Source of the DNA: a virus
IMG/VR virus record: IMGVR_UViG_3300020421_000056
Span: 1-40,263 of that record
Length of the DNA: 40,263 nt
Direction: 5' to 3' (one strand)
Part shown: positions 3,482 to 40,100 of the stretch, piece by piece
How the letters are laid out: the number at the start of each line of letters is the position of its first letter
Numbering within the stretch: position 1 is the stretch's first letter
Notes under the pieces: model-generated
Told to the model about the DNA's origin: nothing
Seen by the model: only the letters and a program-made list of their open reading frames with translations
The model's database searches: none
Made by a program: the position numbers and the translations under genes

Positions 3482-5305
3482 ATGGCTGCTATCATCTCTG
3501 ATAAGTTTAGAATCTTTAATGCTAAACAATTCCTGGAATCGTTAACGGAAGGTCCCAACGATACCAGTGCGGAACGCTCTAGAATGTATTTCTTTGTGGG
3601 ACGCCCACAACCCTGGAAAGCATATCTAGAAATCCACTCGAAAAATGCGACGGCGTTTGCTGTAGGCAATGAAGTCTACGTTGGAACATATGGTTCCACC
3701 ACTTTCCGCGCCACAGTTTCTGCAGTTTATGATAGTGCCCTTCTTTTGACCGACGTTTTTGGCAGTGCTGGCGTTAACTCTGCTCCTACTATTAACTCTA
3801 CTCTAAAGGGTAGAACTGGTGGTGCTGGCGGATCCGACACTGGTGCCGAAGCAGTATCTGGCGTATATCGCTACGCTACAGAAGACGTTCCACCACTTCC
3901 TCTTGACAATCAGAGAGAAAAGAGAGCACTATACGACGAGTTGATTGCTGCCAAGCGTATTACTGACGCATTTGCACGTACTGTTGTTCGCCGTTACAAC
4001 TGGGATCTAGTTGCTAATCCTAAGTTTGACATGTGGAAGCCTGACTATTCTGCTACTCCTGGTGGCGGTGGTCAAATTGGTAAGCAAACAGCAACAGGTG
4101 CTAATAGTATTTCTGATGCTAAGTTCTATGTAATGAACTCCCAGTATGAAGTATTCAAGTGCCTCTATAATGGCGAGAACCCTTCTAACAGCACTGGACA
4201 GAACGCAACTGAAGAACCAAGCACAGGCGGTGCTAACTATGCTTCTGCTACTGGTCTCTACACTGAGACAACTGGTGCTGGTTACATTTGGAAGTATATG
4301 TACACCATCCCAACTGATGATGTACTGAAGTTCCTTTCTTCTGACTTCATGCCAATCGTTCTTCCTTCTAATGCTTCTAGACAAGCAACTGTAGCTCTTG
4401 CTACTGATGGTGCTTGTGACGTTGCTTTGATCGAAAACGCTGGTAGTGGTCTTCCTGCATCACAAACACTATACACATCTATCAAGGGTGATGGAACAGG
4501 TGGTGTTGTTGAATTCGTAACAAACGGTGCTGGTACTATTACATCTGCAAGCATCGAAACTCGTGGATCGGGTTACACCTATGCTAATGTTCTCCTTGGC
4601 AACGGTAACCTCTTCTCTAATGCTGGTTTAAGCAGTGCAGTTACAACTGGTGGTTCTGCTGTTGGTGCTATCGAAATTGTACTTCCTCCTGCAGGTGGTC
4701 ATGGTGCCGATCATGAGGTAGAACTCAATGGTAAGCGTGTTATGACGAACATTCGTCTAACCTACGCTGAAGGTGCTGGTGACTTCCCTGTTGATAACGA
4801 CTTCCGTCGTATTGGTATCATTGCTGATCCATATGACTTTGGAACAACAACGTTTGCAACTAATGACACTCGTTCTGGTCTAAGAGCATTGAAGATCACT
4901 GGTGCTACTGCTGACTTCTCTGTTGACGAGAAAATCCAACAAACTGTAACTGGTGGTACTGCATATGGTACGGTTGTTTCTTGGACACTAGATACTGGTT
5001 CTACAACCGCTGGTGTTCTTAAGTACATCCAAACTAATGATGCACACACTGATTCTGGTGTTGTAAGAGGATTTGAAAGCAACGGTTCTAACGCTGTTAC
5101 TGGTGAAACTTCTACTGCTTCTGGTAACGTCGATACTACTTACACCACTGCTGGATCTCCATTACTAGGTGCCACTTTCGCAAATGGTCTTGCTAATCCA
5201 GAAATTGAAAATAATTCTGGTAGTGTCATCTATGTTGAAAACAGACGACTAATTACTCGTGCTCCTGACCAGATTGAAGACATCAAACTAGTCATCGAGT
5301 TCTGA
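3482..5305 (+). CDS. 8: Baseplate wedge subunit gp8
   Basis: This is a homologue of T4 gp8, a wedge component of the baseplate. Several blocks align by eye with T4 gp8 as I remember it: F-V-G-R-P-Q-P-W at residues 38-45 (T4 F-G-R-S-E-P-W), G-Y-I-W-K-Y-M-Y-T-I-P at 267-277 (T4 G-Y-V-W-E-Y-L-F-E-I-P), F-R-R-I-G-I-I-A-D-P from 441 (T4 F-R-Q-I-S-I-I-T-N-P), and the C-terminal I-Y-V-E-N-R followed by D-Q-I-E-D-I-K. The protein has 607 residues against 334 in T4. Part of the extra length is a G-S-G-Y module (nt 4534-4600) and a T-G-G-T-A-Y-G module near nt 4950. The ATG at 3482 follows the tandem late promoters at a normal distance. The terminator at 5325 ends the unit. Arginine codons CGT and CGC are more common than in the neighbouring fibre genes. 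Confidence 0.92.
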   Translation: MAAIISDKFRIFNAKQFLESLTEGPNDTSAERSRMYFFVGRPQPWKAYLEIHSKNATAFAVGNEVYVGTYGSTTFRATVSAVYDSALLLTDVFGSAGVNSAPTINSTLKGRTGGAGGSDTGAEAVSGVYRYATEDVPPLPLDNQREKRALYDELIAAKRITDAFARTVVRRYNWDLVANPKFDMWKPDYSATPGGGGQIGKQTATGANSISDAKFYVMNSQYEVFKCLYNGENPSNSTGQNATEEPSTGGANYASATGLYTETTGAGYIWKYMYTIPTDDVLKFLSSDFMPIVLPSNASRQATVALATDGACDVALIENAGSGLPASQTLYTSIKGDGTGGVVEFVTNGAGTITSASIETRGSGYTYANVLLGNGNLFSNAGLSSAVTTGGSAVGAIEIVLPPAGGHGADHEVELNGKRVMTNIRLTYAEGAGDFPVDNDFRRIGIIADPYDFGTTTFATNDTRSGLRALKITGATADFSVDEKIQQTVTGGTAYGTVVSWTLDTGSTTAGVLKYIQTNDAHTDSGVVRGFESNGSNAVTGETSTASGNVDTTYTTAGSPLLGATFANGLANPEIENNSGSVIYVENRRLITRAPDQIEDIKLVIEF

Positions 5306-13502: not shown

Positions 13503-13718
13503 ATGGACCACATCAAAGTTGAAGGGCACGATGGTCTCGTAAGAGACAAAAACACTGGTGCCATCATTAATCTGGACGATTCTGCTATATCTGCAAGACG
13601 CAAGTCAAAACAGATAGGTTCCGCGTTGGACGACATAAATATGTTGAAGAATGAAGTTTCTGAGATCAAATCTTTACTTAGAGAGTTAATTAAAAATGCC
13701 AGCAATTCAAGTAGCTAG
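13503..13718 (+). CDS. Small virion-region protein with C-terminal coiled coil
   Basis: This 71-aa protein has an N-terminal block with V-E-G-H-D-G-L-V-R-D and G-A-I-I-N, a pattern I associate with a small gene next to structural genes in many marine T4-like phages. Residues 38-65 form a heptad-like helix, so a trimeric or dimeric coiled coil is plausible. Its 3' end overlaps the next gene by 23 nt in another frame, which suggests translational coupling. It could be a linker or chaperone for the neighbouring fibre proteins; no function is proven. Confidence 0.75.
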   Translation: MDHIKVEGHDGLVRDKNTGAIINLDDSAISARRKSKQIGSALDDINMLKNEVSEIKSLLRELIKNASNSSS

Positions 13719-16700
13719 AACTGATACCTTTGAGAATCAAAGGCAAAAGATTAACACGATCAGTAATCAGATTTTTAGCATCGCTCAAGGTGGTAGCGAT
13801 CTATCTACTGGTATTTTAAAACTAGGTGACGGTACAAAGGCTACTCCGTCACTAGCTTTCACAAATGATGTTGATACAGGACTATACAGAGCAGGATCAA
13901 AAACAATTGGTATTATTTCTAATACCAAACTTCTTGCTACATTTAGTAATCAAAGTAATGAATTCTTTAATGATGTAAATTTCATTAAAAATGAAATATC
14001 ATCAGCATTCATTAATATTACTGACAGTGGTCAAAACTACGATGGAGGAACTTTTAGTGATGTTCCTGTTATTGGTGGATCTGGTATTGGTGGTTCACTT
14101 AATATTACAGTTGAGGCATTTACAGGAACAATCACTAACGTTGGTGTAGATTATATTGCAGGATCATTCTCTAGTGTCAATGTTTCTGGTGGAACTGGAA
14201 CTGGAGCAACAATTACTTTCCAAGTTCTTGGTATTGAAGGATCAACTACAAACAAAGGTAGTTCATACTCTGATGGTCTTTACAGTGATGTTCCATTTAC
14301 TGGCGGTACTGGATCGGGAGCAACATTTTCTTGTAATGTAAACGGTGGTGAGGTAGAAGGAGTTACCATTAGTGACGAGGGATCTGGATATAGAAATGGT
14401 GACGTTCTTTCAGCTAGTAATGCAGATCTTGGAGGATCTGGTGGAGGATTTGTTTATGAAATTAGTAATAGTCCTGGCACAATAGATACTGAATCTTTCC
14501 AATTTGTTGACAAAGGAACTGGGTATGCTGTTGGTGATGTATTAGGACTTCCAGGTGGTATTACTGGAGTATCAACTACTTTAGACAATACCTCTCAAGA
14601 TATTACTGTAACACAAGCACAAGCAGATCAAATTGAAACAGGGTTTGTTGTAACACAAACTGGTGGTGCTGGTGTTCTTGTAGGTAGTGGTGGTCCTGGT
14701 GGTGGTACTAATCCAACGGTATTCAATAAAAGTGGAACTACTATTACGTTGTCTGCTCAACCAGATACTTCTGGATCTGCTACTCTGAGTTTTCAACCAG
14801 CATATGGAACTCCAACGACACCATTCTCGTTTACTATCAGTAAAGTTGGAGCAGTAGAAAATGTATCTGTAAGTGCTGGTGGTAGTGGTTATGCTGGTGG
14901 TGATGTTCTTACTGTATCTCCATTTAATCTGGTTCAACCAATTACGTATACAGTAGATGTAACTCCAGTAGATAAACTTTCATTTACTGGAACACTTGCA
15001 ACTTCTTTTGTATCAGTAGGAGATTCGATTTATATTCCTGGTGGAGCAATTGAGAATACTCAGATTACATCACAAACAACTATTGCAGGTGAATCAAATA
15101 ATTCGTATAGTAATGTAACTGCAACTGGTGGAACTGGATCTGGAGCAGTATTTACAGTAAACAGAGGAATTAGTGGAGATGTTTCTACTGTAGACATTTC
15201 TACTGCTGGTGCTGCATATACAGCAGGTGATGTTCTTACTATTGCTGGTGCAGATGTTGGTGGAACAACGCCAACAGATAACATTGTATTTGAGGCACAA
15301 TCTGTTAGTGCAGATGGAGCTTCTGCAGAAGTTTATGAAGTCCTATCTTCTGGTGGCAATATCACTCTATTGGTTGTTGCTTCGGGTGGTAATTTTACAG
15401 AAAATGATTCCGTTGCAAAAGTTGGAGTTCCTGCCACACTAGCTCCAATTGATTCTCTTGATAGTGGTAACAAATATTTTATTGATACTGGATCTGGATC
15501 AGTATATCATCCATCTTTAACGTTATTTGCTGGCAACACATATAGATTTAATAATGCTTCACAGAGTTCTCACCCATTTAGATTTTCACAATTTCCAGAT
15601 GGTATTCATACTCCAAGTAAAGTTGTTGGATTAACAGCTACCCTAAATGATGCTAGCACTACAGTAACTCTTACAAGCACAACTGGCATTCTACAAGGCA
15701 TGAGTGTCACGTCAACTGGTGGCGGAGGTAGTGGAGGAACTGTTGATTCAGATACCTTTGTAGCATCAGTTGTAGATGCTACGACTATTACCTTAACAAA
15801 AGTTCCTAGTACATCTGGAGCTGCAACTTTAGATTTTACTGGATTTGCTTATACAGAGGGTGTTAGTTATGAAGGATCATATTCATCAATCTTAGTTACA
15901 GAGACCACACCAACTCTATATTATTATTGTGAAGTGCATCCTGATATGGGTGGCAGTGAAAACAATGAACCATCACTTACTATTGATCCAAATAACCCAA
16001 AAACTTTTGGAACTGGTTTTAGTATGACTCTGACAGATGTTTTATCAACATCTGCAGCTGCTATTGATATTAGCGAAAGAAAAATTACAACAAATGAAAT
16101 TGCTGTTGATACTGGAGCAATTGATACACTAACTGTTGCAACACAATTAAATGCTGATCAAATTGTTGGATCAGTAGCTGCATTGAATACGATTAATTCA
16201 AATGCTGCATTTGCTGTCAATTCAACTGGATATGATACTACTATCAATTCTGATAATTTAAAAGTAGGAACTTTATTCAACGTTGAAGCATCTTCAGGAG
16301 ATGTTCAAACTTCTGGTAATTTTAAAACATTAGCAACATTAAATGTTAATGACAAGATTACTGTAACAGATAATACAATTACATCTACTGCAGGAAATAA
16401 CTTAGTTCTACAACCAGCTTCTGGAAAAATTGCAAAAGTTGATGCTCTTTCTGCTCTAATCATTCCTGTTGGTGATACTGCAGGAAGACCTGGATCTGGA
16501 GTTGTTGAAAATGGTGCAATTAGATTCAATACAGATAATAGTCAGTATGAAGGATATAGTGCAGCAACTGGTTCTTGGTCTTCTCTTGGTGGTGTAAGAG
16601 ATATTGATGGTAACACTTATATTCTAGCAGAACTTACTGCTGGTGCTAATGATAATACACTTTGGTTCTATAACGATAGTCAAAACACATTAAAGTTAAC

Positions 16701-18000
16701 AGGAACTGAACTACAGTTTGTTGCAACCAAAACTATTTCTTCTCCTAAGTTAGGTCTTCCAACTTACTCTGTGTTTACACAAAACACTCCAGTTGTAATC
16801 GGAAACTATGTTAAGTATAGAAACAATCTGTATGAAGTTACAGGTGCTGGTACAACTGGTGGTCAAGGAACAGAACCAGTTCACACATCAGGTGCTGCTA
16901 ACAGTGGCACTGCACAACTTACTTTCTCGCAAGTAGCTGTTTCTGAGTTAATCTTTAATGAAGTAGATGAAGTAAGAATCGGACCTAATAAAGATTGTCC
17001 TTTAATTATTGGTCAAGAACTCAAACTACATGACAACAGAATTTCAACAACTGTTCAGGATTTAATCATTGAACCTAATGCAGGTAAACAAGTAATTGTA
17101 AACTCTGTAACACACTTTAGAATTCCTGCTGGTAATGATAATCAGAAATCTGTAGCTCCTGCTGGTGCTGGTTCTATTCGTTTCAACACTACAATTCAAC
17201 AGTTTGAAGGATATAGTGGTACTAACTGGTCTTCACTTGGTGGTGTTAGAGACGTTGATGGCAATACTTATATTATTCCAGAAACTGCTCCTGCAGCAAA
17301 TGAAAATATTCTATACTTCTATAATAATAACGTCAATACAATTCAGTTAACTGAAACTGTATTAGATTTTACTAATATTGATACTATCACAACTAGTGGT
17401 GGAACAAGTCTTGCTCTTGACACATCAACTTTAACATTAAACAGTAACGCAACTACTATTGATAACAGTGCTGCTGACAGAACATTTATTAGTACCACAA
17501 AACAATACCTTGATTTGGGTCTTTCAAGTGGATTAAATACTGATCCTGTTCTTAGATTAGATGATCAAGGTGATGTTTACTTAAACACAACATTTGGATC
17601 TGGATCTTTCAATGGTGTTAAGGTTCTTGATGGAGAACTAAAAGAATTTGAACTAGCTGATTTTAAAATTGCGACAACAACATTTGCTTTGATTAAAGGT
17701 GGTTTAGAATCTTCTAACGCTATTTTATATAATAGTGGAACATCCAAAGGATGTAAAGTATCAGTCGTATCACAATCCAGTTCTGGAAAGAGATCTTTTT
17801 GTGAATATTCAGTTATAGATAATGGTACTGACATCTTCCATAATGAATATGGATCTCTGAATACTTCTGGTGCTGATGGTTTCACAGCAGCATTTGACTT
17901 CACTGCTTCTACAGAAGCCAGAATTACATTAACCCTGACAAATGATCATGCGACTTCTGATGTTGTTAACTTCACCGTACTAGTTCAGGAACTCAAGTAA
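13696..18000 (+). CDS. Fibre-like virion protein with embedded cupredoxin-like domain
   Basis: The 1434-aa protein starts with a conserved-looking segment (V-A-R-T-D-T-F-E-N-Q-R-Q-K-I-N) followed by a fibre motif, P-S-L-A-F-T-N-D-V-D-T-G-L-Y-R. Residues about 105-525 hold repeated glycine-rich G-x-x-Y beta modules. Residues about 590-760 look like a cupredoxin domain with H626, C745, H748 and M751 as candidate copper ligands. The C-terminal part has two copies of a module containing I-R-F-N-T and S-S-L-G-G-V-R-D-x-D-G-N-T-Y-I (nt about 16510-16625 and 17175-17280). The last ~150 residues resemble a globular head domain without recognised family. The ATG at 13696 is inside the previous gene, and the stop codon shares its last base with the next ATG. 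It is probably a fibritin or whisker or fibre-type protein; the precise structural position is unknown. Confidence 0.8.
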   Translation: MPAIQVARTDTFENQRQKINTISNQIFSIAQGGSDLSTGILKLGDGTKATPSLAFTNDVDTGLYRAGSKTIGIISNTKLLATFSNQSNEFFNDVNFIKNEISSAFINITDSGQNYDGGTFSDVPVIGGSGIGGSLNITVEAFTGTITNVGVDYIAGSFSSVNVSGGTGTGATITFQVLGIEGSTTNKGSSYSDGLYSDVPFTGGTGSGATFSCNVNGGEVEGVTISDEGSGYRNGDVLSASNADLGGSGGGFVYEISNSPGTIDTESFQFVDKGTGYAVGDVLGLPGGITGVSTTLDNTSQDITVTQAQADQIETGFVVTQTGGAGVLVGSGGPGGGTNPTVFNKSGTTITLSAQPDTSGSATLSFQPAYGTPTTPFSFTISKVGAVENVSVSAGGSGYAGGDVLTVSPFNLVQPITYTVDVTPVDKLSFTGTLATSFVSVGDSIYIPGGAIENTQITSQTTIAGESNNSYSNVTATGGTGSGAVFTVNRGISGDVSTVDISTAGAAYTAGDVLTIAGADVGGTTPTDNIVFEAQSVSADGASAEVYEVLSSGGNITLLVVASGGNFTENDSVAKVGVPATLAPIDSLDSGNKYFIDTGSGSVYHPSLTLFAGNTYRFNNASQSSHPFRFSQFPDGIHTPSKVVGLTATLNDASTTVTLTSTTGILQGMSVTSTGGGGSGGTVDSDTFVASVVDATTITLTKVPSTSGAATLDFTGFAYTEGVSYEGSYSSILVTETTPTLYYYCEVHPDMGGSENNEPSLTIDPNNPKTFGTGFSMTLTDVLSTSAAAIDISERKITTNEIAVDTGAIDTLTVATQLNADQIVGSVAALNTINSNAAFAVNSTGYDTTINSDNLKVGTLFNVEASSGDVQTSGNFKTLATLNVNDKITVTDNTITSTAGNNLVLQPASGKIAKVDALSALIIPVGDTAGRPGSGVVENGAIRFNTDNSQYEGYSAATGSWSSLGGVRDIDGNTYILAELTAGANDNTLWFYNDSQNTLKLTGTELQFVATKTISSPKLGLPTYSVFTQNTPVVIGNYVKYRNNLYEVTGAGTTGGQGTEPVHTSGAANSGTAQLTFSQVAVSELIFNEVDEVRIGPNKDCPLIIGQELKLHDNRISTTVQDLIIEPNAGKQVIVNSVTHFRIPAGNDNQKSVAPAGAGSIRFNTTIQQFEGYSGTNWSSLGGVRDVDGNTYIIPETAPAANENILYFYNNNVNTIQLTETVLDFTNIDTITTSGGTSLALDTSTLTLNSNATTIDNSAADRTFISTTKQYLDLGLSSGLNTDPVLRLDDQGDVYLNTTFGSGSFNGVKVLDGELKEFELADFKIATTTFALIKGGLESSNAILYNSGTSKGCKVSVVSQSSSGKRSFCEYSVIDNGTDIFHNEYGSLNTSGADGFTAAFDFTASTEARITLTLTNDHATSDVVNFTVLVQELK
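14006..15264 (+). repeat. Cluster of degenerate G-x-x-Y beta modules in the 1434-aa protein
   Basis: About six degenerate modules of roughly 30-45 codons share a pattern: a beta strand, a G-S-G-Y-type turn, a D/G-x-x-x-D-V strand, and a G-G-T-G-S-G-A loop. Approximate copies are 14006-14117, 14128-14226, 14236-14466, 14497-14560, 14850-14920 and 15097-15264. Single or paired copies of the same module occur in five other virion genes in this window. Confidence 0.7.
15463..15975 (+). other. Predicted type 1 copper (cupredoxin-like) domain within fibre protein
   Basis: Residues about 590-760 contain a G-N-T-Y-R-F strand, S-S-H-P-F-R-F (H626) and the C-terminal loop L-Y-Y-Y-C-E-V-H-P-D-M-G-G with C745, H748 and M751. 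The spacing C-x2-H-x2-M equals that of amicyanin-type blue copper proteins, and one upstream His completes the four-ligand set. Residues about 641-717 (nt 15616-15846) look like an inserted module between two cupredoxin strands. The fold call is from motifs only. Confidence 0.65.
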
Positions 18001-29632: not shown

Positions 29633-30751
29633 ATGTCATCTCTTAATGTAGATAAACTGAATGTAACAACAGGAATTGAACTTCCTTCGTATACTGCAAG
29701 TAATAGACCTACTGGAACGGTGGGTCTAATGATCTTCAATTCCGATACTGGAACAGTTGAAATTTATGATGGTGCTTCATGGATTTCTACAGGTCAAGGT
29801 GGTATCGAAGCAACTGGTGGAATTGTAAGTGTTAGCGGTAATTACAAAATGCACGCTTTCACTCAACCAGGAACTTCTGCTTTCACAGTTAATTCAGTTC
29901 CCGCTGGAACAACTGCAGAAGTTTTAGTCGTTGCTGGTGGTGGCGGTGGCGGTGGTTCCTATGGCGGAGGAGGAGGCGGTGGAGGCGGTGGCGTTGTCCA
30001 TCATACTTCATATCCTATTTCCGTTGGAACTTATAACGTTGTTGTTGGTGACGGTGGTATATCAGGAGTTGGTTCGCCAGGAACTAATACTTCTAACTCT
30101 TCTGCAACTCATGGTCGTCCTGGTGGCGACAGTTACTTTGATAATATTCAAGCTATTGGTGGCGGTGGCGGAAACGAGTGTTTCTATTACTTCTCAATCT
30201 ACAAGAATGGTGGATCTGGTGGAGGTGGTGGAGATTATTGGCCAGCAACTAGAGCAGGAAACGTACCTGGTGGTAGAGCATGGACTGGAGGAAATGCTCT
30301 CCAAGGAAATAATGCAGGTGGAACATACTACGGAAACGCAGGTGGTAGCAGAGCATCGGAAGATGGTGGACATGCATCTCCTCATGAAGGTGCTGGTGGA
30401 GGTGGTGCAGGAGGTACTGCATCTGGAGGTAATTCCTCTACAGCAAGTAATGGCGGAATCGGAATTCAATTAAATCAATTCTCACCTTATGGATTCCCTT
30501 CAGGATGGTTCGCTGGTGGTGGTGGAGGTGGATACTACACTACAGGTGGAGGTTCTGCTAACAGAGCAAATAATTCTACTGGAGGTTACTACGGCGGTGG
30601 TGGTCGTGGTGGATCTACTGGTTATTCCTTATATGGAGAAGATGGTGTAAACGCTACAGGCGGTGGCGGCGGCGGTGGATCAGGTAACAATACCAACCCA
30701 CCAGCAGGTAGAGGCGGATCAGGAATTGTTATTGTACGTTATCAAATCTAA
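29633..30751 (+). CDS. Glycine-rich adhesin-like tail fibre protein 1
   Basis: The 372-aa protein has a short N-terminal domain with G-L-M-I-F-N-S-D-T-G-T-V-E-I-Y-D-G-A-S-W, a motif common at the base of phage fibres. After V-L-V-V-A-G-G-G come polyglycine tracts alternating with short variable loops rich in N, S, Y and W. It closes with G-G-S-G-I-V-I-V-R-Y. This matches the marine-phage glycine-rich domain and resembles in principle the polyglycine adhesins (gp38 type) that set host range in T-even phages. It is paralogous to the next gene, from which it is separated by 3 nt. The function as receptor-binding tip is inferred from composition and position after the giant fibre. Other frames over the GGN tracts are open but are artefacts. 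Confidence 0.82.
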   Translation: MSSLNVDKLNVTTGIELPSYTASNRPTGTVGLMIFNSDTGTVEIYDGASWISTGQGGIEATGGIVSVSGNYKMHAFTQPGTSAFTVNSVPAGTTAEVLVVAGGGGGGGSYGGGGGGGGGGVVHHTSYPISVGTYNVVVGDGGISGVGSPGTNTSNSSATHGRPGGDSYFDNIQAIGGGGGNECFYYFSIYKNGGSGGGGGDYWPATRAGNVPGGRAWTGGNALQGNNAGGTYYGNAGGSRASEDGGHASPHEGAGGGGAGGTASGGNSSTASNGGIGIQLNQFSPYGFPSGWFAGGGGGGYYTTGGGSANRANNSTGGYYGGGGRGGSTGYSLYGEDGVNATGGGGGGGSGNNTNPPAGRGGSGIVIVRYQI

Positions 30752-30754
30752 AAA

Positions 30755-32170
30755 ATGTCAAAGTTAACAGTAGGTACTCTAAGACCGTCCGAGGCATTTA
30801 CAGTTCCTCTTCAAACGACGGCAGTGAGAAATGCTACCAACCATGTTGTTGGAGCTATCATTTATAACACAGATACTGGTGCAGCTCAAGTTCTAACCGC
30901 AAACAGTGGTTGGTTAAATCTTGGTAAGGGAAAGGTGCAAGCTACTGGTGGAACTGTTACCACACCAGGTGATGGTTATAAGTATCATGCATTTACAAAT
31001 ACAGCATCCCCACAGACATTCACTGTTACCGCAGCTGGATTCCAAGCATCCATTGAACTTTTAATTGTCGCTGGTGGCGGCGGTGGAGGAGGTTCCCACG
31101 GCGGTGGCGGCGGTGGCGGCGGAGGAGGAGTCCTCTGGCAACCACAATGGTTCCCTGAGACAGGAGATTACACAGTAAAAGTTGGTGCTGGTGGGGCAGG
31201 TGGTCAGACTGGTTCTTACTACACAAATGGATATTATTACACAGGACAAGGAGATGGTAATTTCTTCCATGGTCGTAGAGGAGAAAATAGTTATGTGAAA
31301 AAAACTAATAATGACCAAATCCAATTCGTTGCCATTGGTGGCGGTGGTGGAATGGAATCATTCTACACAAATAACGAGCAAAGAACTAAAACTGGAACCA
31401 ATTATTGGGGAAAGAATGACGGTTTTGATGAAAGAGATGGTGGATCAGGTGGTGGATCAGGAGACCACTACAGTGGAGTTCAATCATGGGTAACTCATAA
31501 CACTGGTGGTAGATGCATCCAAGGAAACTTTGGTGGTTATGGATATGGTAATGGTGGTGGTAGCAGACACGCATGGGGAATCGGACCACACAACGGACCT
31601 TATAATAGAAAAAATAATGGAGATTATCCATCAGGTAACATGGGTTCTGATGGTGGATATGTTCCAGATTATGGAATGAATGGTCACGGACAAGACACTG
31701 GTCATGGACAACCACATGAAGGTGCTGGCGGTGGCGGAGCTGGAGGATTTGAATTAGGTCGTATGGGTAGTAATACTGATTATGGTCAAGTTAACTGGCC
31801 AGCATTGGTAAAACCTTGGAGTAATAGTGCGCCAGGTTCTGGTGGTCCTGGTAGATATTTTCCTGGTTTTGAAGCATGGGGAACTACACAAACCAACGGA
31901 ACTACTGGAAACAGAGGTTGGTTTGGTGGTGGTGGAGACGGTGGTCAATACTGGTACGCCACCAATGGTGACAGAGGAGAAAACTTTAAAGGTGGTGGCG
32001 GTGGAAGAGGAAACCACCAACACAATGGTTACTATGCAACCAATGGTCTTCCTAATACAGGAGGCGGCGGTGGCGGTGGATCACAAAATAATGCTGGTGG
32101 AGGAAATCAATCAGGACAACCTGCAGGTTCTGGTGGTTCTGGTATTGTTATTATCAGATATAAAGCGTAA
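30755..32170 (+). CDS. Glycine-rich adhesin-like tail fibre protein 2
   Basis: This 471-aa paralogue of the preceding protein shares the N-terminal G-A-I-I-Y-N-T-D-T-G motif, the E-L-L-I-V-A-G-G-G entry into polyglycine and the C-terminal G-G-S-G-I-V-I-I-R-Y. It is about 100 residues longer in the loop region, with extra N, H, Y and W-rich segments near residues 140-300. It ends exactly where the antisense oxygenase block ends, with no spacer, and its terminator lies inside that block. A host-range role is likely by analogy with polyglycine adhesins; which molecule it binds cannot be told. Confidence 0.82.
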   Translation: MSKLTVGTLRPSEAFTVPLQTTAVRNATNHVVGAIIYNTDTGAAQVLTANSGWLNLGKGKVQATGGTVTTPGDGYKYHAFTNTASPQTFTVTAAGFQASIELLIVAGGGGGGGSHGGGGGGGGGGVLWQPQWFPETGDYTVKVGAGGAGGQTGSYYTNGYYYTGQGDGNFFHGRRGENSYVKKTNNDQIQFVAIGGGGGMESFYTNNEQRTKTGTNYWGKNDGFDERDGGSGGGSGDHYSGVQSWVTHNTGGRCIQGNFGGYGYGNGGGSRHAWGIGPHNGPYNRKNNGDYPSGNMGSDGGYVPDYGMNGHGQDTGHGQPHEGAGGGGAGGFELGRMGSNTDYGQVNWPALVKPWSNSAPGSGGPGRYFPGFEAWGTTQTNGTTGNRGWFGGGGDGGQYWYATNGDRGENFKGGGGGRGNHQHNGYYATNGLPNTGGGGGGGSQNNAGGGNQSGQPAGSGGSGIVIIRYKA

Positions 32171-32749
32171 CTACCATGCCCAACAAACAAAGGTATCTCT
32201 CACTCCACTGAGTATTGGATTTACCCTATGTTGATATAAGAAATTAGAGGGGAAGCATACCACTTCCCCTTTTTTTAGTTTTATGGCATAATCTTCCCAG
32301 AATACTAATTCACCACCTTCGTAGTCATCGTTAAGAGCTCCAACAAAAGAGAGTGCAGGAATACCAGGATTACTACCATCAAATAAACTTTTAATGTGAT
32401 CAAAATGCATTTCCATTTTTTGATCAATGTGATAACGATTGAATCTAATTTCTGAATATGAAAAGATAAAATTAGATGTGTTGATATGGGATTCGTCTGA
32501 ATAATTTTTTTGATATCTGTTTCCAGTTTGCAAAACAAAAGAATTCAAAATTGAATCAAGAGGTTTTGAATAAGTTATATCTGGTTCTTTGGGTGCTTCT
32601 GTTGCTTCCACTGCATCTCCATATATGGATCCCCATTGATGCTTCTCCCAATGATTAGATTCTAATTCTTTTAGAACATAATCACATATAGGATCTGGTA
32701 TTGATTTTTCTACTAAGATAAAATCAAGGAGTTTGCTGGACTGCTTCAT
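32171..32749 (-). CDS. 2OG-Fe(II) oxygenase, prolyl-4-hydroxylase-like (last of five)
   Basis: The 192-aa protein has the double-stranded beta-helix signature of 2-oxoglutarate/Fe(II) dioxygenases. It shows R-Y-H near residue 107, the metal motif H115-x-D117, the strand G-G-E-L-V-F-W, the strand G-E-V-V-C-F-P-S, the distal metal ligand H174 in Y-Q-H-R-V, and R184 as the likely 2-oxoglutarate anchor. All key residues are present, so it should be active. It is the most distal gene of the minus-strand cassette; its start overlaps the preceding gene by 26 nt. Its 3' coding sequence contains, on the opposite strand, the terminator of the adhesin genes. The substrate is unknown; protein residues or small molecules are both possible. 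Confidence 0.85.
   Translation of the reverse strand: MKQSSKLLDFILVEKSIPDPICDYVLKELESNHWEKHQWGSIYGDAVEATEAPKEPDITYSKPLDSILNSFVLQTGNRYQKNYSDESHINTSNFIFSYSEIRFNRYHIDQKMEMHFDHIKSLFDGSNPGIPALSFVGALNDDYEGGELVFWEDYAIKLKKGEVVCFPSNFLYQHRVNPILSGVRDTFVCWAW
32248..32276 (+). terminator. Terminator of the fibre/adhesin unit, inside antisense coding sequence
   Basis: A perfect 8-bp stem AGGGGAAG/CTTCCCCT (32248-32255 with 32263-32270), loop CATACCA, is followed by T at 32270-32276. It works in the + direction, 78 nt after the stop codon of the second glycine-rich gene, within the coding sequence of the minus-strand oxygenase. On the minus strand there is no matching T-run. Confidence 0.88.
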
Positions 32750-33347
32750 TGAAAAATTGCTCGATGTTTAAACCTTTATCCTTAAATTCATACCACCCAG
32801 TGGCAATATATTTTGTTTGAGATGGACTTGCAATTCCATGATGTGTATGTGTCCAATATGCTGGCCAGATAACTAATCTTCCTTCTACAGCATCCGTTGC
32901 AATATCATAGTTTACAAAACGAGTTCCACCTTTATCGGTAACAGTATTCAAATAGAACATCCATGCCATAATTCTTCCTGTAGTACCATCCATACATTCA
33001 CAATGTGGAGCATGATATCCTTGTTCTGGTTCGTATTTTTGAATATTATATAACTCAGCTAACTCCCAAGTAGATACGTTATCAATCTCTGGATGTACTT
33101 CTCTATATTTTCCAATATACGTAAGAAGAGTAGAGGCAATAATTTTATCTGGTTCTGTCCAGTTATGAAAATTCATCCAAACATCAGTAGAATCTTTATA
33201 AGTTTTATCTACTTGAATATCCCAAGCATCTTTATATACCTGACCAGGATGTTTAAGGTTTGGTGGAGCACCATCAAAGAACTCCATAATTTCCTTACAC
33301 TGTTCTGGAGTAAGAGCGTTGTCGTATACTTCTATAAAATTTTTCAT
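32724..33347 (-). CDS. 2OG-Fe(II) oxygenase, prolyl-4-hydroxylase-like (fourth of five)
   Basis: The 207-aa protein has Y-N-I-Q-K-Y-E-P near residue 100, then Y-H-A-P-H-C-E with H115 and E117 as the H-x-E metal pair. These are followed by W-M-F-Y-L-N-T-V, G-G-T-R-F, G-R-L-V-I-W-P-A-Y-W-T-H-T-H-H-G (distal His 167 or 169) and K179-Y-I-A-T-G-W. A lysine stands where many family members have arginine for 2-oxoglutarate binding, which is also known in prolyl 4-hydroxylases. This pattern is recurrent in cyanophage oxygenases. It overlaps its upstream neighbour by 4 nt, so the genes are translationally coupled. Substrate unknown. Confidence 0.87.
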   Translation of the reverse strand: MKNFIEVYDNALTPEQCKEIMEFFDGAPPNLKHPGQVYKDAWDIQVDKTYKDSTDVWMNFHNWTEPDKIIASTLLTYIGKYREVHPEIDNVSTWELAELYNIQKYEPEQGYHAPHCECMDGTTGRIMAWMFYLNTVTDKGGTRFVNYDIATDAVEGRLVIWPAYWTHTHHGIASPSQTKYIATGWYEFKDKGLNIEQFFNEAVQQTP

Positions 33348-33904
33348 TTTAAATTAAAGGAAATAATTGTTCTTCTTTTATCACTCATATTTGAGGATGC
33401 TTCATGTTGAATAAAAGATGGAAATATAATAAGATCTCCTTCTTTTACCTTAGGCACATATGATTCATATTGACCTAATATACTTCTACTGTTTGATGGA
33501 TATGGACAGTAAAATGTTGTTGCTGAATGTTCTTCACTATCAAATTCTACATATAAAACTGCACTCCATCCACCAATGCCATGGTTATGAACTTGAAAAT
33601 TGTTATATTTTTCGTATGTTTGAAACCAGATAGCATTCAAGTCCCAACTTTCTTGAGTAGATGAGCAGAATGATTTCATTTCATCATCTATGCAACTTAG
33701 AATAGTATTAGCATACTCAGGTGGTTCATTCAAATTTTCAAAATAATCAGTATAGTGATTCTTATCACCATGACTACTGCTTTTTGATTTCTCCAATTTG
33801 TATTTTTTAAAATCTGGAAGGTTATCTAGGATAACCTTCTTTTTGTTTTTCCAATCTTCAATACTGAATAAGTAAAAAGGAATACTAAACTGGTTTTCAA
33901 TCAT
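33344..33904 (-). CDS. 2OG-Fe(II) oxygenase-like protein, H-x-H type (third of five)
   Basis: The 186-aa product shows V-H-N-H-G-I-G-G-W-S-A-V-L-Y-V with H106 and H108, the strand F-Y-C-P, then G-D-L-I-I-F-P-S-F-I-Q-H (distal H167) and R177/R178 before T-I-I-S-F-N. This order resembles the TIGR02466-type putative 2OG-Fe(II) oxygenases. The classical H-x-D is replaced by H-x-H in the visible motif, so the third metal ligand is unclear. The composition is rich in Lys, Ser and Asn. The start codon shares one base with the upstream stop codon and the stop overlaps the next start. Function beyond the fold is unknown. Confidence 0.78.
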   Translation of the reverse strand: MIENQFSIPFYLFSIEDWKNKKKVILDNLPDFKKYKLEKSKSSSHGDKNHYTDYFENLNEPPEYANTILSCIDDEMKSFCSSTQESWDLNAIWFQTYEKYNNFQVHNHGIGGWSAVLYVEFDSEEHSATTFYCPYPSNSRSILGQYESYVPKVKEGDLIIFPSFIQHEASSNMSDKRRTIISFNLK

Positions 33905-34587
33905 CAGTTTACGGTAAGATCCACAGCAATAATTTTATCATGCTCATCCCAATTACATTTTCCAGAAGGAAAACTGTTAAATGCAATTGACCATCTTGGA
34001 TCATCTCCTTGATGTGGTTCAGTATAATGCTTCATGTATGCAGGAAACAAAATTAATTGACCAGGATAAGCTCTAGGAGTCCAAGTGTCATTTGTAGTTT
34101 TATCAAATACTTGAAGACCTCTAAGTTTTTGTTCTACTGGATCTGTAAAACATGTTCCAATACCATCATGAAGATGAAAAACACCAGAGACCAATGACAT
34201 GGTATGGTAATGTGCATGGTGTTGTGCATGTTTAATTGACTTATTTCCCCACATCAAAGTAGGTTCAAGTTTTTCACATTGCATTTCAAAGCGTTTTCTA
34301 TAATACTCAAGGCAAATTTTTATCCATGCAGTAAGTTCAGCAAACTCTTGTCTCCTATGCAATTCTCTGTCTAAGGTTTGTACTGCTCTCACAATAACAG
34401 TTTGAGACATTTGTGAGGGAATTGGATCTTTAAATTTTAGAGCGTTTTGTTCTTCTTCTAACTGATGCCTTTTATCAACTTCTTCATCAAGAATAGGAAT
34501 TAATTTTTTCCAATCAACTTTTTCTGATAAGTCAAAGTTGAAAATGTATGAAGGAAAGATACCATCAATGCTTGCTTCTAGATCCAT
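33904..34587 (-). CDS. 2OG-Fe(II) oxygenase-like protein, H-x-H type (second of five)
   Basis: The 227-aa protein has a helical first half (residues 25-105, charged) and a C-terminal dioxygenase-like core. The core shows H-H-A-H-Y-H at 123-128 followed by S-L-V-S-G-V-F-H-L, then F-T-D-P, G-Q-L-I-L-F-P-A-Y-M-K-H (distal H187) and R198-W-S-I-A-F-N. This is again the TIGR02466-like arrangement. Several histidines compete for the metal position, and no plain H-x-D is seen. It shares a TAATG junction with the gene before it. It is related to its two neighbours in this subgroup, yet too different for a recent duplication. Substrate unknown. Confidence 0.8.
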   Translation of the reverse strand: MDLEASIDGIFPSYIFNFDLSEKVDWKKLIPILDEEVDKRHQLEEEQNALKFKDPIPSQMSQTVIVRAVQTLDRELHRRQEFAELTAWIKICLEYYRKRFEMQCEKLEPTLMWGNKSIKHAQHHAHYHTMSLVSGVFHLHDGIGTCFTDPVEQKLRGLQVFDKTTNDTWTPRAYPGQLILFPAYMKHYTEPHQGDDPRWSIAFNSFPSGKCNWDEHDKIIAVDLTVN

Positions 34588-35186
34588 TATGATAAGTCAC
34601 GAATAGTTTTTACAATGTTGAATGAGATTACAATTTTTTCCCCTTCTCCTTCCTGTTTAGTTGTTCCATGAATAAAATCACTTCTAAACATTAGAAGCCT
34701 AGCAGGTACACAAGGGTAATTGGTTGTAGACCAATTCAGTGGGTTGCTGTATTTAGGGGGTTCAAAAGGAGGGTCCATTTGATCATAAAACGTAATCGAA
34801 TTCTCTTCTGATGTCTTTACGTAGTATGCTCCTGACATAATACAACCAGGGTGTGAGTGTGGAAATAGAAAATCATCCTTGTTACTAATGTTACTCCACA
34901 TATTACCAATAAAACATTCTGAGATATAATCTTCACAATATCCCAAACGGTCCATATAGAAAGCAAAGTTATCCATGATTACTGAAGATAATTCAGAGAA
35001 CACTTCCTCTTTCTGTAATAATCTATTAGTCAGGTGAGATGAATTGACCTGAAATGCTTTTGTTCTTTCTGTTACTAACTCCTTACACTTCTTCTCTAGT
35101 TCTGGAAGAAGATCTTCACACACTTCATCTCTGATATACACTGTCCTCGGAAACCAGGTTTCAATCCTAGGTGGTTGATTTGACAT
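34587..35186 (-). CDS. 2OG-Fe(II) oxygenase-like protein, H-x-H type (first of five)
   Basis: The 199-aa protein starts the minus-strand cassette. It has F-P-H-S-H-P-G at 108-114 (H110, H112), then S-G-A-Y-Y-V, I-T-F-Y-D, A-R-L-L-M-F-R-S-D-F-I-H-G-T with distal H173, and K184-I-V-I-S-F-N. The order fits the TIGR02466-like putative 2OG-Fe(II) oxygenases. Lys replaces the usual Arg before the last strand. A near-consensus sigma70 promoter ends about 28 nt upstream of its ATG, giving a short leader. Three cysteines in the first 90 residues have no known role. Confidence 0.8.
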   Translation of the reverse strand: MSNQPPRIETWFPRTVYIRDEVCEDLLPELEKKCKELVTERTKAFQVNSSHLTNRLLQKEEVFSELSSVIMDNFAFYMDRLGYCEDYISECFIGNMWSNISNKDDFLFPHSHPGCIMSGAYYVKTSEENSITFYDQMDPPFEPPKYSNPLNWSTTNYPCVPARLLMFRSDFIHGTTKQEGEGEKIVISFNIVKTIRDLS

Positions 35187-39312: not shown

Positions 39313-39480
39313 ATGAGTTTTGAATCAGAAATGCGTTTTAATGACACTGATGTCACACGTCTGCTTACTGCCTGCAAACTCTACCAAGAACAAACTGGTA
39401 GTGAATGGATGTGGGAACAATATGATGCTTTGATTAATAAACTCAAGGTATATCAAGAACAATATTCAACCGACCAATGA
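39313..39480 (+). CDS. Small protein leading the petE-petF unit (55 aa)
   Basis: The frame from ATG 39313 to TGA 39480 encodes 55 residues, acidic overall and mostly helical, with W32-M-W34 in the middle and a single cysteine (C21). Similar short proteins recur in cyanophages as far as I know, without assigned function. Its stop codon overlaps the petE start by 4 nt (ATGA), which argues that it is a real gene translated with petE. Confidence 0.7.
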   Translation: MSFESEMRFNDTDVTRLLTACKLYQEQTGSEWMWEQYDALINKLKVYQEQYSTDQ

Positions 39481-39800
39481 GATTTTTATTTGCGTTTCTA
39501 GCAACGCTATTTTTTGCTGCGCCCGTATGGGCAGTCGATGTAGTTATGGGTTCCAACGGGAACTTAGTTTTTGAACCAAACGATATTACTATCAATGCAG
39601 GTGACACTATTCACTTTGTGAATGGTATGTTACCACCACACAATATTATTGTAGAGGGTCGCGCTGATCTATCACGCGAATCTCTTATGTTCTCTCCTGG
39701 TGAATCACAAGATATCACATTTGCTGACGCAGGTGATTATGATTTCTTCTGTGGTCCTCATCAGGGAGCAGGCATGGTAGGCACAATTCACGTTCAATAG
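39477..39800 (+). CDS. petE: Plastocyanin
   Basis: The 107-aa precursor has a signal peptide (residues 1-19, cut after P-V-W-A), as needed for export to the thylakoid lumen. The mature part of 88 residues is a type 1 copper protein with ligands H55 (P-P-H-N), C92, H95 and M100 in C-G-P-H-Q-G-A-G-M. It would carry electrons from cytochrome b6f to photosystem I or a terminal oxidase in the infected cyanobacterium. The residue before the ligand cysteine is F91, where most plastocyanins have Tyr83, and the P-H-Q-G replaces cyanobacterial P-H-R-G. It is acquired from a host and clustered with petF and PTOX, as in several known cyanophages. Confidence 0.95.
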   Translation: MRFLFAFLATLFFAAPVWAVDVVMGSNGNLVFEPNDITINAGDTIHFVNGMLPPHNIIVEGRADLSRESLMFSPGESQDITFADAGDYDFFCGPHQGAGMVGTIHVQ

Positions 39801-39812
39801 ATTAAATAACAG

Positions 39813-40100
39813 ATGTATACGATTACTTGGAAGACGAACGAAGGCGAGAGCACATTTGAGTGCGATGAAGATACAAACATTTTAGATGCTGCAGAGGAAG
39901 CAGGAGTCGATGGTCCATATTCTTGTAGAGCAGGTGCATGTTCTACATGTGCAGGAAAATTAGAATCAGGAACAGTAGATCAAGAAGAACAATCTTTTCT
40001 TGATGATGATCAAATTGAAGAAGGATTTATTCTAACTTGTGTGGCAAAACCCACAAGTGATTGTGTAGTTCTTACGGAACAAGAAGAACATCTATATTAA
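39813..40100 (+). CDS. petF: Plant-type [2Fe-2S] ferredoxin
   Basis: The 95-aa protein is a photosynthetic ferredoxin of normal length without signal peptide, so it acts in the cytoplasm. C38, C43, C46 and C76 are the four cluster ligands (C-x4-C-x2-C then L-T-C). The [11 protein letters not shown] block and the C-terminal acidic residues ending in L-Y match the family. It would accept electrons from photosystem I and pass them to host or phage reductases; a cyanophage ferredoxin is known from published work to support host-type reductases. It lies 12 nt after petE and shares its last base with the next start codon. Confidence 0.95.

What the first reader, a model, noticed from the sequence alone, without database searches (positions are those of the whole stretch)
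15463..15975. Blue-copper-type domain inside a phage fibre protein
Residues about 590-760 of the 1434-aa protein show a cupredoxin-like order of strands and a complete type 1 copper set: H626, then C745, H748 and M751 with C-x2-H-x2-M spacing as in amicyanin. This is a virion protein, not an electron carrier, and the same window also encodes a true plastocyanin. A metal-binding or redox-active site on a fibre could act in stability, trimer assembly or surface sensing. I recall similar Y-Y-Y-C-x-x-H-x-x-M-G-G segments in marine phage fibres, without a described role.
Basis: partly seen in the sequence, partly recalled or inferred. Interest (0 to 1): 0.75.

Follow-up and report, generated by a model that had tools for sequence, protein, structure and literature searches.

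The report
Blue-copper-like domain on marine phages
A structural protein of an ocean virus of cyanobacteria carries a domain related to the small blue copper proteins of photosynthesis, with its four metal-holding residues intact; the same domain recurs across many marine phages and in surface proteins of marine microbes, so these virus particles probably carry copper or a similar metal, for a purpose still unknown.

Summary
The domain (aa ~591-768) is a cupredoxin-type module split by a ~70-aa nested insert. Insert-free relatives recur in tail-fibre, baseplate and connector proteins of marine phages only (220 GenBank records) and at the ends of surface proteins of marine bacteria and archaea. 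Of 55 distinct copies found without using the ligands, all keep all four. Relatives link by sequence to the plastocyanin/azurin family above Pfam's cut-off; the window copy itself does not reach it. AlphaFold is confident (pLDDT 89), but solved-fold matches are sub-threshold (cupredoxin AcoP, E 0.05) and ligand distances could not be measured. In orthologues with a second intact copy the nested copy has usually lost its ligands (9/12 versus 2/28), so one metal site per chain seems to be kept while the domain survives without it. Most likely: a virion-displayed type-1-copper-like site used in surface contact; metal identity and role are untested. I found no paper describing it.

The parts
13696..18000 (+). 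1434-aa virion structural protein (phrog_6005) that carries the domain
   Evidence: ORF; phrog_6005 E=0; same gene order in Kyanoviridae phages
15466..15999 (+). cupredoxin-like domain, aa ~591-768, including the nested insert
   Evidence: two HMM segments in order, 6.6e-19 and 1.4e-12; AlphaFold pLDDT 89.1, pTM 0.82
15571..15573 (+). H626, proposed first His ligand, just before a strand (SSH-PFRFS)
   Evidence: H in 45 of 48 divergent copies; invariant in A3 and A4
15619..15831 (+). nested insert (aa ~642-712) splitting the domain; resembles aa ~290-370 of the same protein
   Evidence: absent from short relatives L009, L028-L031; a query holding it matches the corresponding stretch of orthologues at 34-41% identity
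15919..15954 (+). ligand loop LYYYC-EV-H-PD-MGG with C745, H748, M751
15928..15930 (+). C745, proposed Cys ligand at the end of a strand
   Evidence: the strand at model residues 156-160 ends on this Cys
15937..15939 (+). H748, proposed second His ligand
15946..15948 (+). M751, proposed axial Met ligand

Best explanation
Aa ~591-768 form a cupredoxin-family domain with a complete type-1 copper ligand set, carried as an accessory module on a baseplate-associated virion protein of a T4-like marine cyanophage. Shown: ligands, their conservation, the nested insert, recurrence in many marine phage virion proteins and cell-surface proteins, and sequence linkage of relatives to the plastocyanin/azurin family. 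Inferred: each chain displays one mononuclear copper (or similar soft-metal) site outside the particle, loaded after lysis because copper is normally kept out of the cyanobacterial cytosol; and the site is used in contact with the cell surface or other surfaces rather than for folding, because domain copies that lost the ligands persist while a second copy in the same chain keeps them.
For: Ligands exact. All four kept in 55/55 distinct short copies fetched by patterns that contain no ligand, and in 12/12 short copies in the first-scan and GenBank phage loci; 66/67 cellular copies keep the C-H-M loop. The rare departures are mostly loop-length variants C-x2-H-x3-M and C-x2-H-x4-M, as occur among real type-1 sites. 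A Woeseiaceae copy passes Pfam Copper-bind, 24.0 vs 21.2 bits, E 5.9e-5; phage copy L094 passes SoxE sulfocyanin, 21.3 vs 21; a sister phage domain scores E 6e-4 to Copper-bind and 24 of its 26 PDB matches are blue copper proteins, best E 0.02. hhalign of all copies to ten cupredoxins: probability 83%, E 9e-6 for one comparison. AlphaFold pLDDT 89, pTM 0.82, H before a strand and C at a strand end. Ligand loss in nested copies 9/12 when a second intact copy exists, 2/28 otherwise, Fisher p 3.7e-5; 38/40 proteins keep at least one intact set.
Against: No fold match below E 0.001 in the PDB; best cupredoxin AcoP at 0.05 with poor superposition (TM 0.26-0.33), and the truncated short-form model matched immunoglobulin domains. 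The window protein itself has no Pfam match. Two orthologues (S-PM2, L021) have no intact set in this protein, and S-PM2 shows no other copy at E<=0.01. On independent pairs the association is about 3.5 concordant, 0 discordant, p 0.125-0.25, so not significant after allowing for relatedness. hhalign aligned the cupredoxin His with the neighbouring GTH/GIH histidine (H638 here) rather than H626. Virion location rests on annotation; the surface-contact role has no direct evidence.
Confidence: 0.62

Rival explanations
1. Structural copper (or zinc) lock: the metal only stabilises the domain against seawater and light; no contact or redox role.
For: Metal binding stabilises known cupredoxins (established knowledge); ligands under strong conservation.
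Against: Nested copies without ligands persist as recognisable domains in many orthologues, so metal is not needed to keep the domain.
Confidence: 0.25
2. Redox or electron-transfer module: a working blue-copper centre on the tail exchanges electrons with host surface or periplasmic partners, or senses redox state, during adsorption.
For: Complete His2CysMet set with amicyanin-like spacing; cellular relatives lie on exported proteins.
Against: No partner or electron route known for a virion; the cellular relatives scanned sit on collagen, cadherin-like and fasciclin-type proteins rather than electron-transfer proteins.
Confidence: 0.12
3. Metal Trojan horse: virion-bound copper is recognised by host copper or metallophore uptake receptors, by analogy with the proposed iron route of tail fibres.
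For: Iron-binding HxH motifs in marine phage tail fibres are proposed to work this way (PMC11705849); the domain is confined to marine phages in the collection searched.
Against: No receptor evidence; the domain is also on cell-surface proteins of the microbes themselves.
Confidence: 0.08
4. Immunoglobulin-like beta-sandwich with no metal; the Cys/His/Met residues are coincidental or serve packing.
For: The short-form model matched immunoglobulin folds first; Ig-like domains are common on phages (background knowledge).
Against: Ligand invariance across copies under 70% identical, Copper-bind and SoxE hits, blue copper enrichment in the PDB search. The short-form model was cut before the last strand, which may explain its matches.
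Confidence: 0.07

Closest known systems
Pfam PF00127 Copper-bind (plastocyanin, azurin, amicyanin, pseudoazurin)
   Same: Order His ... Cys-x2-His-x2-4-Met; His just before a strand and Cys at the end of a strand; 13 residues from the conserved Gly to the His in both this domain and the window's plastocyanin (read from sequence); a cellular relative passes the curated cut-off
   Different: The window copy does not match the model; embedded in a 1434-aa virion protein and split by an insert
Amicyanin (C-x2-H-x2-M loop)
   Same: Same ligand-loop spacing (amicyanin spacing from general knowledge)
   Different: Amicyanin is a soluble periplasmic electron carrier; the sequence match is sub-threshold even for the phage sister domain
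AcoP cupredoxin (Acidithiobacillus)
   Same: Best and repeated cupredoxin in the PDB fold search of the window model
   Different: E 0.05, poor superposition, no sequence match
Iron-binding HxH sites in phage tail fibres (T4 gp37; Alteromonas phage R22Y, PMC11705849)
   Same: Metal site on a tail component, proposed also for marine phages
   Different: Octahedral His sites for iron in a fibre, not a folded cupredoxin domain
Ig-like accessory domains on tailed-phage structural proteins (background knowledge)
   Same: Mobile beta-sandwich module recurring in unrelated virion proteins
   Different: No metal ligands; this module carries a conserved His2CysMet set

Membership tests
Cupredoxin superfamily (type-1 blue copper) | Ligand order His ... 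Cys-x2-His-x2-4-Met | tested here: met
   H626, C745, H748, M751
Cupredoxin superfamily (type-1 blue copper) | Ligands conserved among homologues | tested here: met
   55/55 copies from retrieval without ligands; 186/190 strict C-x2-H-x2-M overall; lost at the orthologous nested site in 11 of 40, 9 of these with a second intact copy
Cupredoxin superfamily (type-1 blue copper) | Greek-key beta-barrel topology of cupredoxins | tested here: inconclusive
   All-beta confident model; AcoP matches at E 0.05-0.6 only; short model gives Ig folds
Cupredoxin superfamily (type-1 blue copper) | Four ligands close in space | not testable with these tools
Cupredoxin superfamily (type-1 blue copper) | Copper binding, absorbance near 600 nm | not testable with these tools
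   needs purified protein
Pfam PF00127 Copper-bind | Score above the curated cut-off | tested here: not met
   Window protein and domain: no match. Relatives: Woeseiaceae copy 24.0 vs 21.2 bits, met; phage copies E 0.0056 and 6e-4, below cut-off
Amicyanin/plastocyanin as soluble electron carrier | Small exported single-domain protein | tested here: not met
   One domain of a 1434-aa protein, no signal peptide apparent in the sequence
phrog_6005 virion structural protein | Profile match over most of its length | tested here: met
   1662 bits, best stretch aa 210-1434 of 1434

The most novel reading that the evidence does not exclude
Marine tailed phages carry working blue-copper centres on their tails, at least one per chain, that act in infection (redox sensing, copper-dependent adhesion or copper piracy), from a module shared with surface proteins of SAR86, Poseidoniales and other open-ocean microbes.
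Probability: 0.25. Interest if true: 0.9.

Novelty: new variant of a known kind. Interest (0 to 1): 0.68.

Why it matters
If metal binding holds, virions of abundant ocean phages would be copper ligands with a defined site, which bears on how cyanophages attach, on particle chemistry in seawater, and on trace-metal budgets. It gives a directly testable hypothesis (four ligands, one domain) for a class of proteins annotated only as 'virion structural', and it names an apparently undescribed extracellular copper-type domain in major marine microbes.

Tried and rejected
Direct Pfam, NCBIfam and PDB sequence searches of the window domain: nothing relevant. hhalign of smaller sets of forms to ten cupredoxins: weak, probability 6-51%. 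Short-form fold search probably misled by a model truncated before the last strand. PDB hits to antibodies, capsids and ribosomal L31 judged chance. 'Ligands not conserved' was considered from the orthologue alignment and qualified after finding the second intact copies. Viral Cu-nitrite reductase NirK (PMC8115048) is unrelated to this domain. Literature searches for cupredoxin or blue copper with phage tail, virion or baseplate found no description.

Full report
What is in the sequence. The window is a 40,263-base virus record with T4-like cyanophage genes: a gp8-like baseplate wedge protein (3482-5305), a 2695-aa DUF4815 protein, the 1434-aa protein in question (13696-18000), a 166-aa virion protein, a 3682-aa ORF in the place where relatives have tail-fibre-like genes, then neck and sheath-stabiliser genes. 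The 1434-aa protein is phrog_6005 (E=0), annotated as a virion structural protein; that annotation, and the same gene order in Kyanoviridae genomes, is the basis for placing it in the particle near the baseplate. H626, C745, H748 and M751 are exactly as described; C..H..M arises in 0.02% of shuffles of this protein.

The domain and its insert. Relatives come in two forms. Short forms of about 95 aa (L009, L028-L031) run NKYFID...GNTYRFD...SGHPLRFSTTSDGTHGGGSEYTTGV...APTLYYYCSxHSGMGG. The window form has the same blocks but with about 70 aa inserted between DGIHTPS and FAYTEGV. The insert resembles aa ~290-370 of the same protein by eye, and a query holding it matches that stretch in close orthologues at 34-41% identity. 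A profile of short forms matches the window protein in two segments in order, 6.6e-19 and 1.4e-12, and nothing else in the window convincingly. The spacing from the conserved Gly to the first His is 13 residues both here (GNTYRFNNASQSSH) and in the window's own plastocyanin (GDTIHFVNGMLPPH), read directly from the sequences.

Distribution. In 50,697 GenBank phages, 220 records match, all Synechococcus, Prochlorococcus, Pelagibacter, Methylophilales or uncultured marine phages as far as the names tell. The copies sit in several protein families: tail fibre, baseplate wedge, baseplate wedge-tail fibre connector, gp7 of P-HM1. In a genome collection 64 loci encode it: some are evident phage tail genes (a T7-tail N-terminus in a Pelagibacteraceae contig), others are cellular proteins with lipoprotein-like starts and collagen, cadherin-like or fasciclin domains in SAR86, Marine Group II archaea, Woeseiaceae, SAR92 and others, with the domain mostly at the C-terminus. 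Because the scans used patterns from marine members, absence elsewhere is only as good as those searches.

Ligand conservation. To avoid circularity I separated loci fetched with patterns that contain ligands from those that do not. All four ligands are kept in 55/55 distinct copies of the latter. They are also kept in 12/12 short copies in the first-scan and GenBank loci (one of the six patterns holds the ligand loop, so this set is not wholly free of bias). 66/67 cellular copies keep the C-H-M loop. Of 190 distinct copies, 186 have C-x2-H-x2-M; of the other four, two have C-x2-H-x3-M, one C-x2-H-x4-M, and one (the second copy of L251, in a protein with an intact first copy) has lost the site.

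Is it a cupredoxin? By sequence the window copy alone does not say so. The family does. The Woeseiaceae copy exceeds the Pfam Copper-bind cut-off (24.0 vs 21.2 bits, E 5.9e-5; identified as the same domain; read within its whole protein it scores 20.4, just under). L094 exceeds the SoxE sulfocyanin cut-off (21.3 vs 21). Five of 16 phage short forms hit Copper-bind weakly (best 0.0056). A sister domain at the end of ~680-aa cyanophage proteins (GDTLVFNVSASGHPFYVK...PGTYYYICQFHGGMVGQIIIS), matched by the same profile at about 1e-11 to 1e-13, hits Copper-bind at 6e-4, and 24 of its 26 PDB matches are plastocyanin, pseudoazurin, rusticyanin, auracyanin, azurin or amicyanin, the best at E 0.02. A profile of all copies against ten cupredoxins gives 83% probability, E 9e-6 for a single comparison. 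That alignment pairs the cupredoxin His with the neighbouring GTH/GIH His (H638 here); I prefer H626 because it is nearly invariant while the other is H in about half of divergent copies and because the Gly-His spacing fits. By structure, AlphaFold is confident (pLDDT 89, pTM 0.82; strands 30-34 and 43-46 with the His between them, and 156-160 ending on the Cys). Foldseek finds no PDB match below 0.001; AcoP is the best cupredoxin and recurs seven times, E 0.05-0.6, with poor superposition, presumably because of the insert. In the viral library the model superposes on independently predicted relatives over 167-188 columns at 2.4-3.7 A (P-TIM68 fibre, S-RIM14 connector, S-TIM5), and on the ACG-2014e orthologue at TM 0.83. 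Ligand distances could not be read.

Second copies and ligand loss. Some orthologues carry an additional short copy near aa 260-355. Across 40 orthologues the nested copy has lost its ligands in 9 of 12 proteins with an intact short copy and in 2 of 28 without (Fisher p 3.7e-5); two proteins with a degenerate first copy keep the nested one; 38 of 40 keep at least one set. States were read from the alignments and checked with a motif scan; one loss is a single Met to Glu (L024), and one (S-CAM4, L277) keeps the Cys and a shifted His. On the tree the nested loss needs 6 changes; independent pairs are 3-4 concordant and none discordant in the loss-first test, too few to be significant. Some rows are near-identical (L013/L015, L116/L117), so the Fisher value overstates the evidence. 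I read this as support, not proof, that one metal site per chain is what is maintained, and that the domain does not need the metal to persist.

Mechanism. Shown: conserved ligand set, modular spread, family linkage. Inferred: copper or a similar soft metal binds; the site is outside the particle; loading occurs after lysis; the role is surface contact. The argument for a contact role is indirect: the domain lies on tail parts of phages and on exported adhesin-like proteins of the same ocean microbes, and the metal seems not to be needed for the fold to persist. Redox use and metal piracy are not excluded; iron in phage tail fibres has been proposed to serve the latter (PMC11705849).

Novelty. 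Cupredoxins are well known; I found no paper describing one in a phage virion (open-access papers only). As an accessory virion module with a nested insert it is a new variant of a known kind.

Noticed in passing
39477-40100: petE (plastocyanin, C-x2-H-x4-M loop) directly followed by a petF-like 2Fe-2S ferredoxin ORF (39813-40100): an electron-transfer pair at the window's end.
   Followed up: partly
32171-35186 (-): Five consecutive minus-strand ORFs, several of which look by eye like 2OG-Fe(II) oxygenase-type proteins.
   Followed up: no
29633-32170: Two neighbouring Gly-rich proteins (372 and 471 aa) with long GGGG tracts and similar ends (IVIVRY/IVIIRY), apparently tandem duplicates; the first matches phrog_2295.
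   Followed up: no
L304, L305, L306, L308, L309 (also P-SSM2, MED4-213, S-BM3): A second cyanophage cupredoxin-type domain (PGTYYYICQFHGGMVGQIII) at the end of ~680-980-aa hypothetical or subtilisin-like protease proteins; 103 GenBank phage records match; clearer blue-copper similarity than the window domain.
   Followed up: partly
L208, L210, L215, L216, L222, L236: Contigs labelled Euryarchaeota / Marine Group II / Thalassarchaeaceae carry the domain at the C-terminus of ~340-400-aa proteins; the one scanned (L210) has a lipoprotein-like start and collagen-type repeats.
   Followed up: partly
L029, L031 short forms: Weak Pfam hits to PF25489 (At5g54830-like domain, E 0.014-0.032), a possible eukaryotic relative.
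   Followed up: no
L003 (S-B43): The phrog_6005 gene is short (1092 aa) and lies beside reverse-strand hypotheticals instead of the usual baseplate gene, with an odd C-x5-H loop: a rearranged locus.
   Followed up: no
16576-16719 and 17227-17370: A 144-nt direct repeat (73%) and many Gly/Thr-rich short repeats in the same gene.
   Followed up: no
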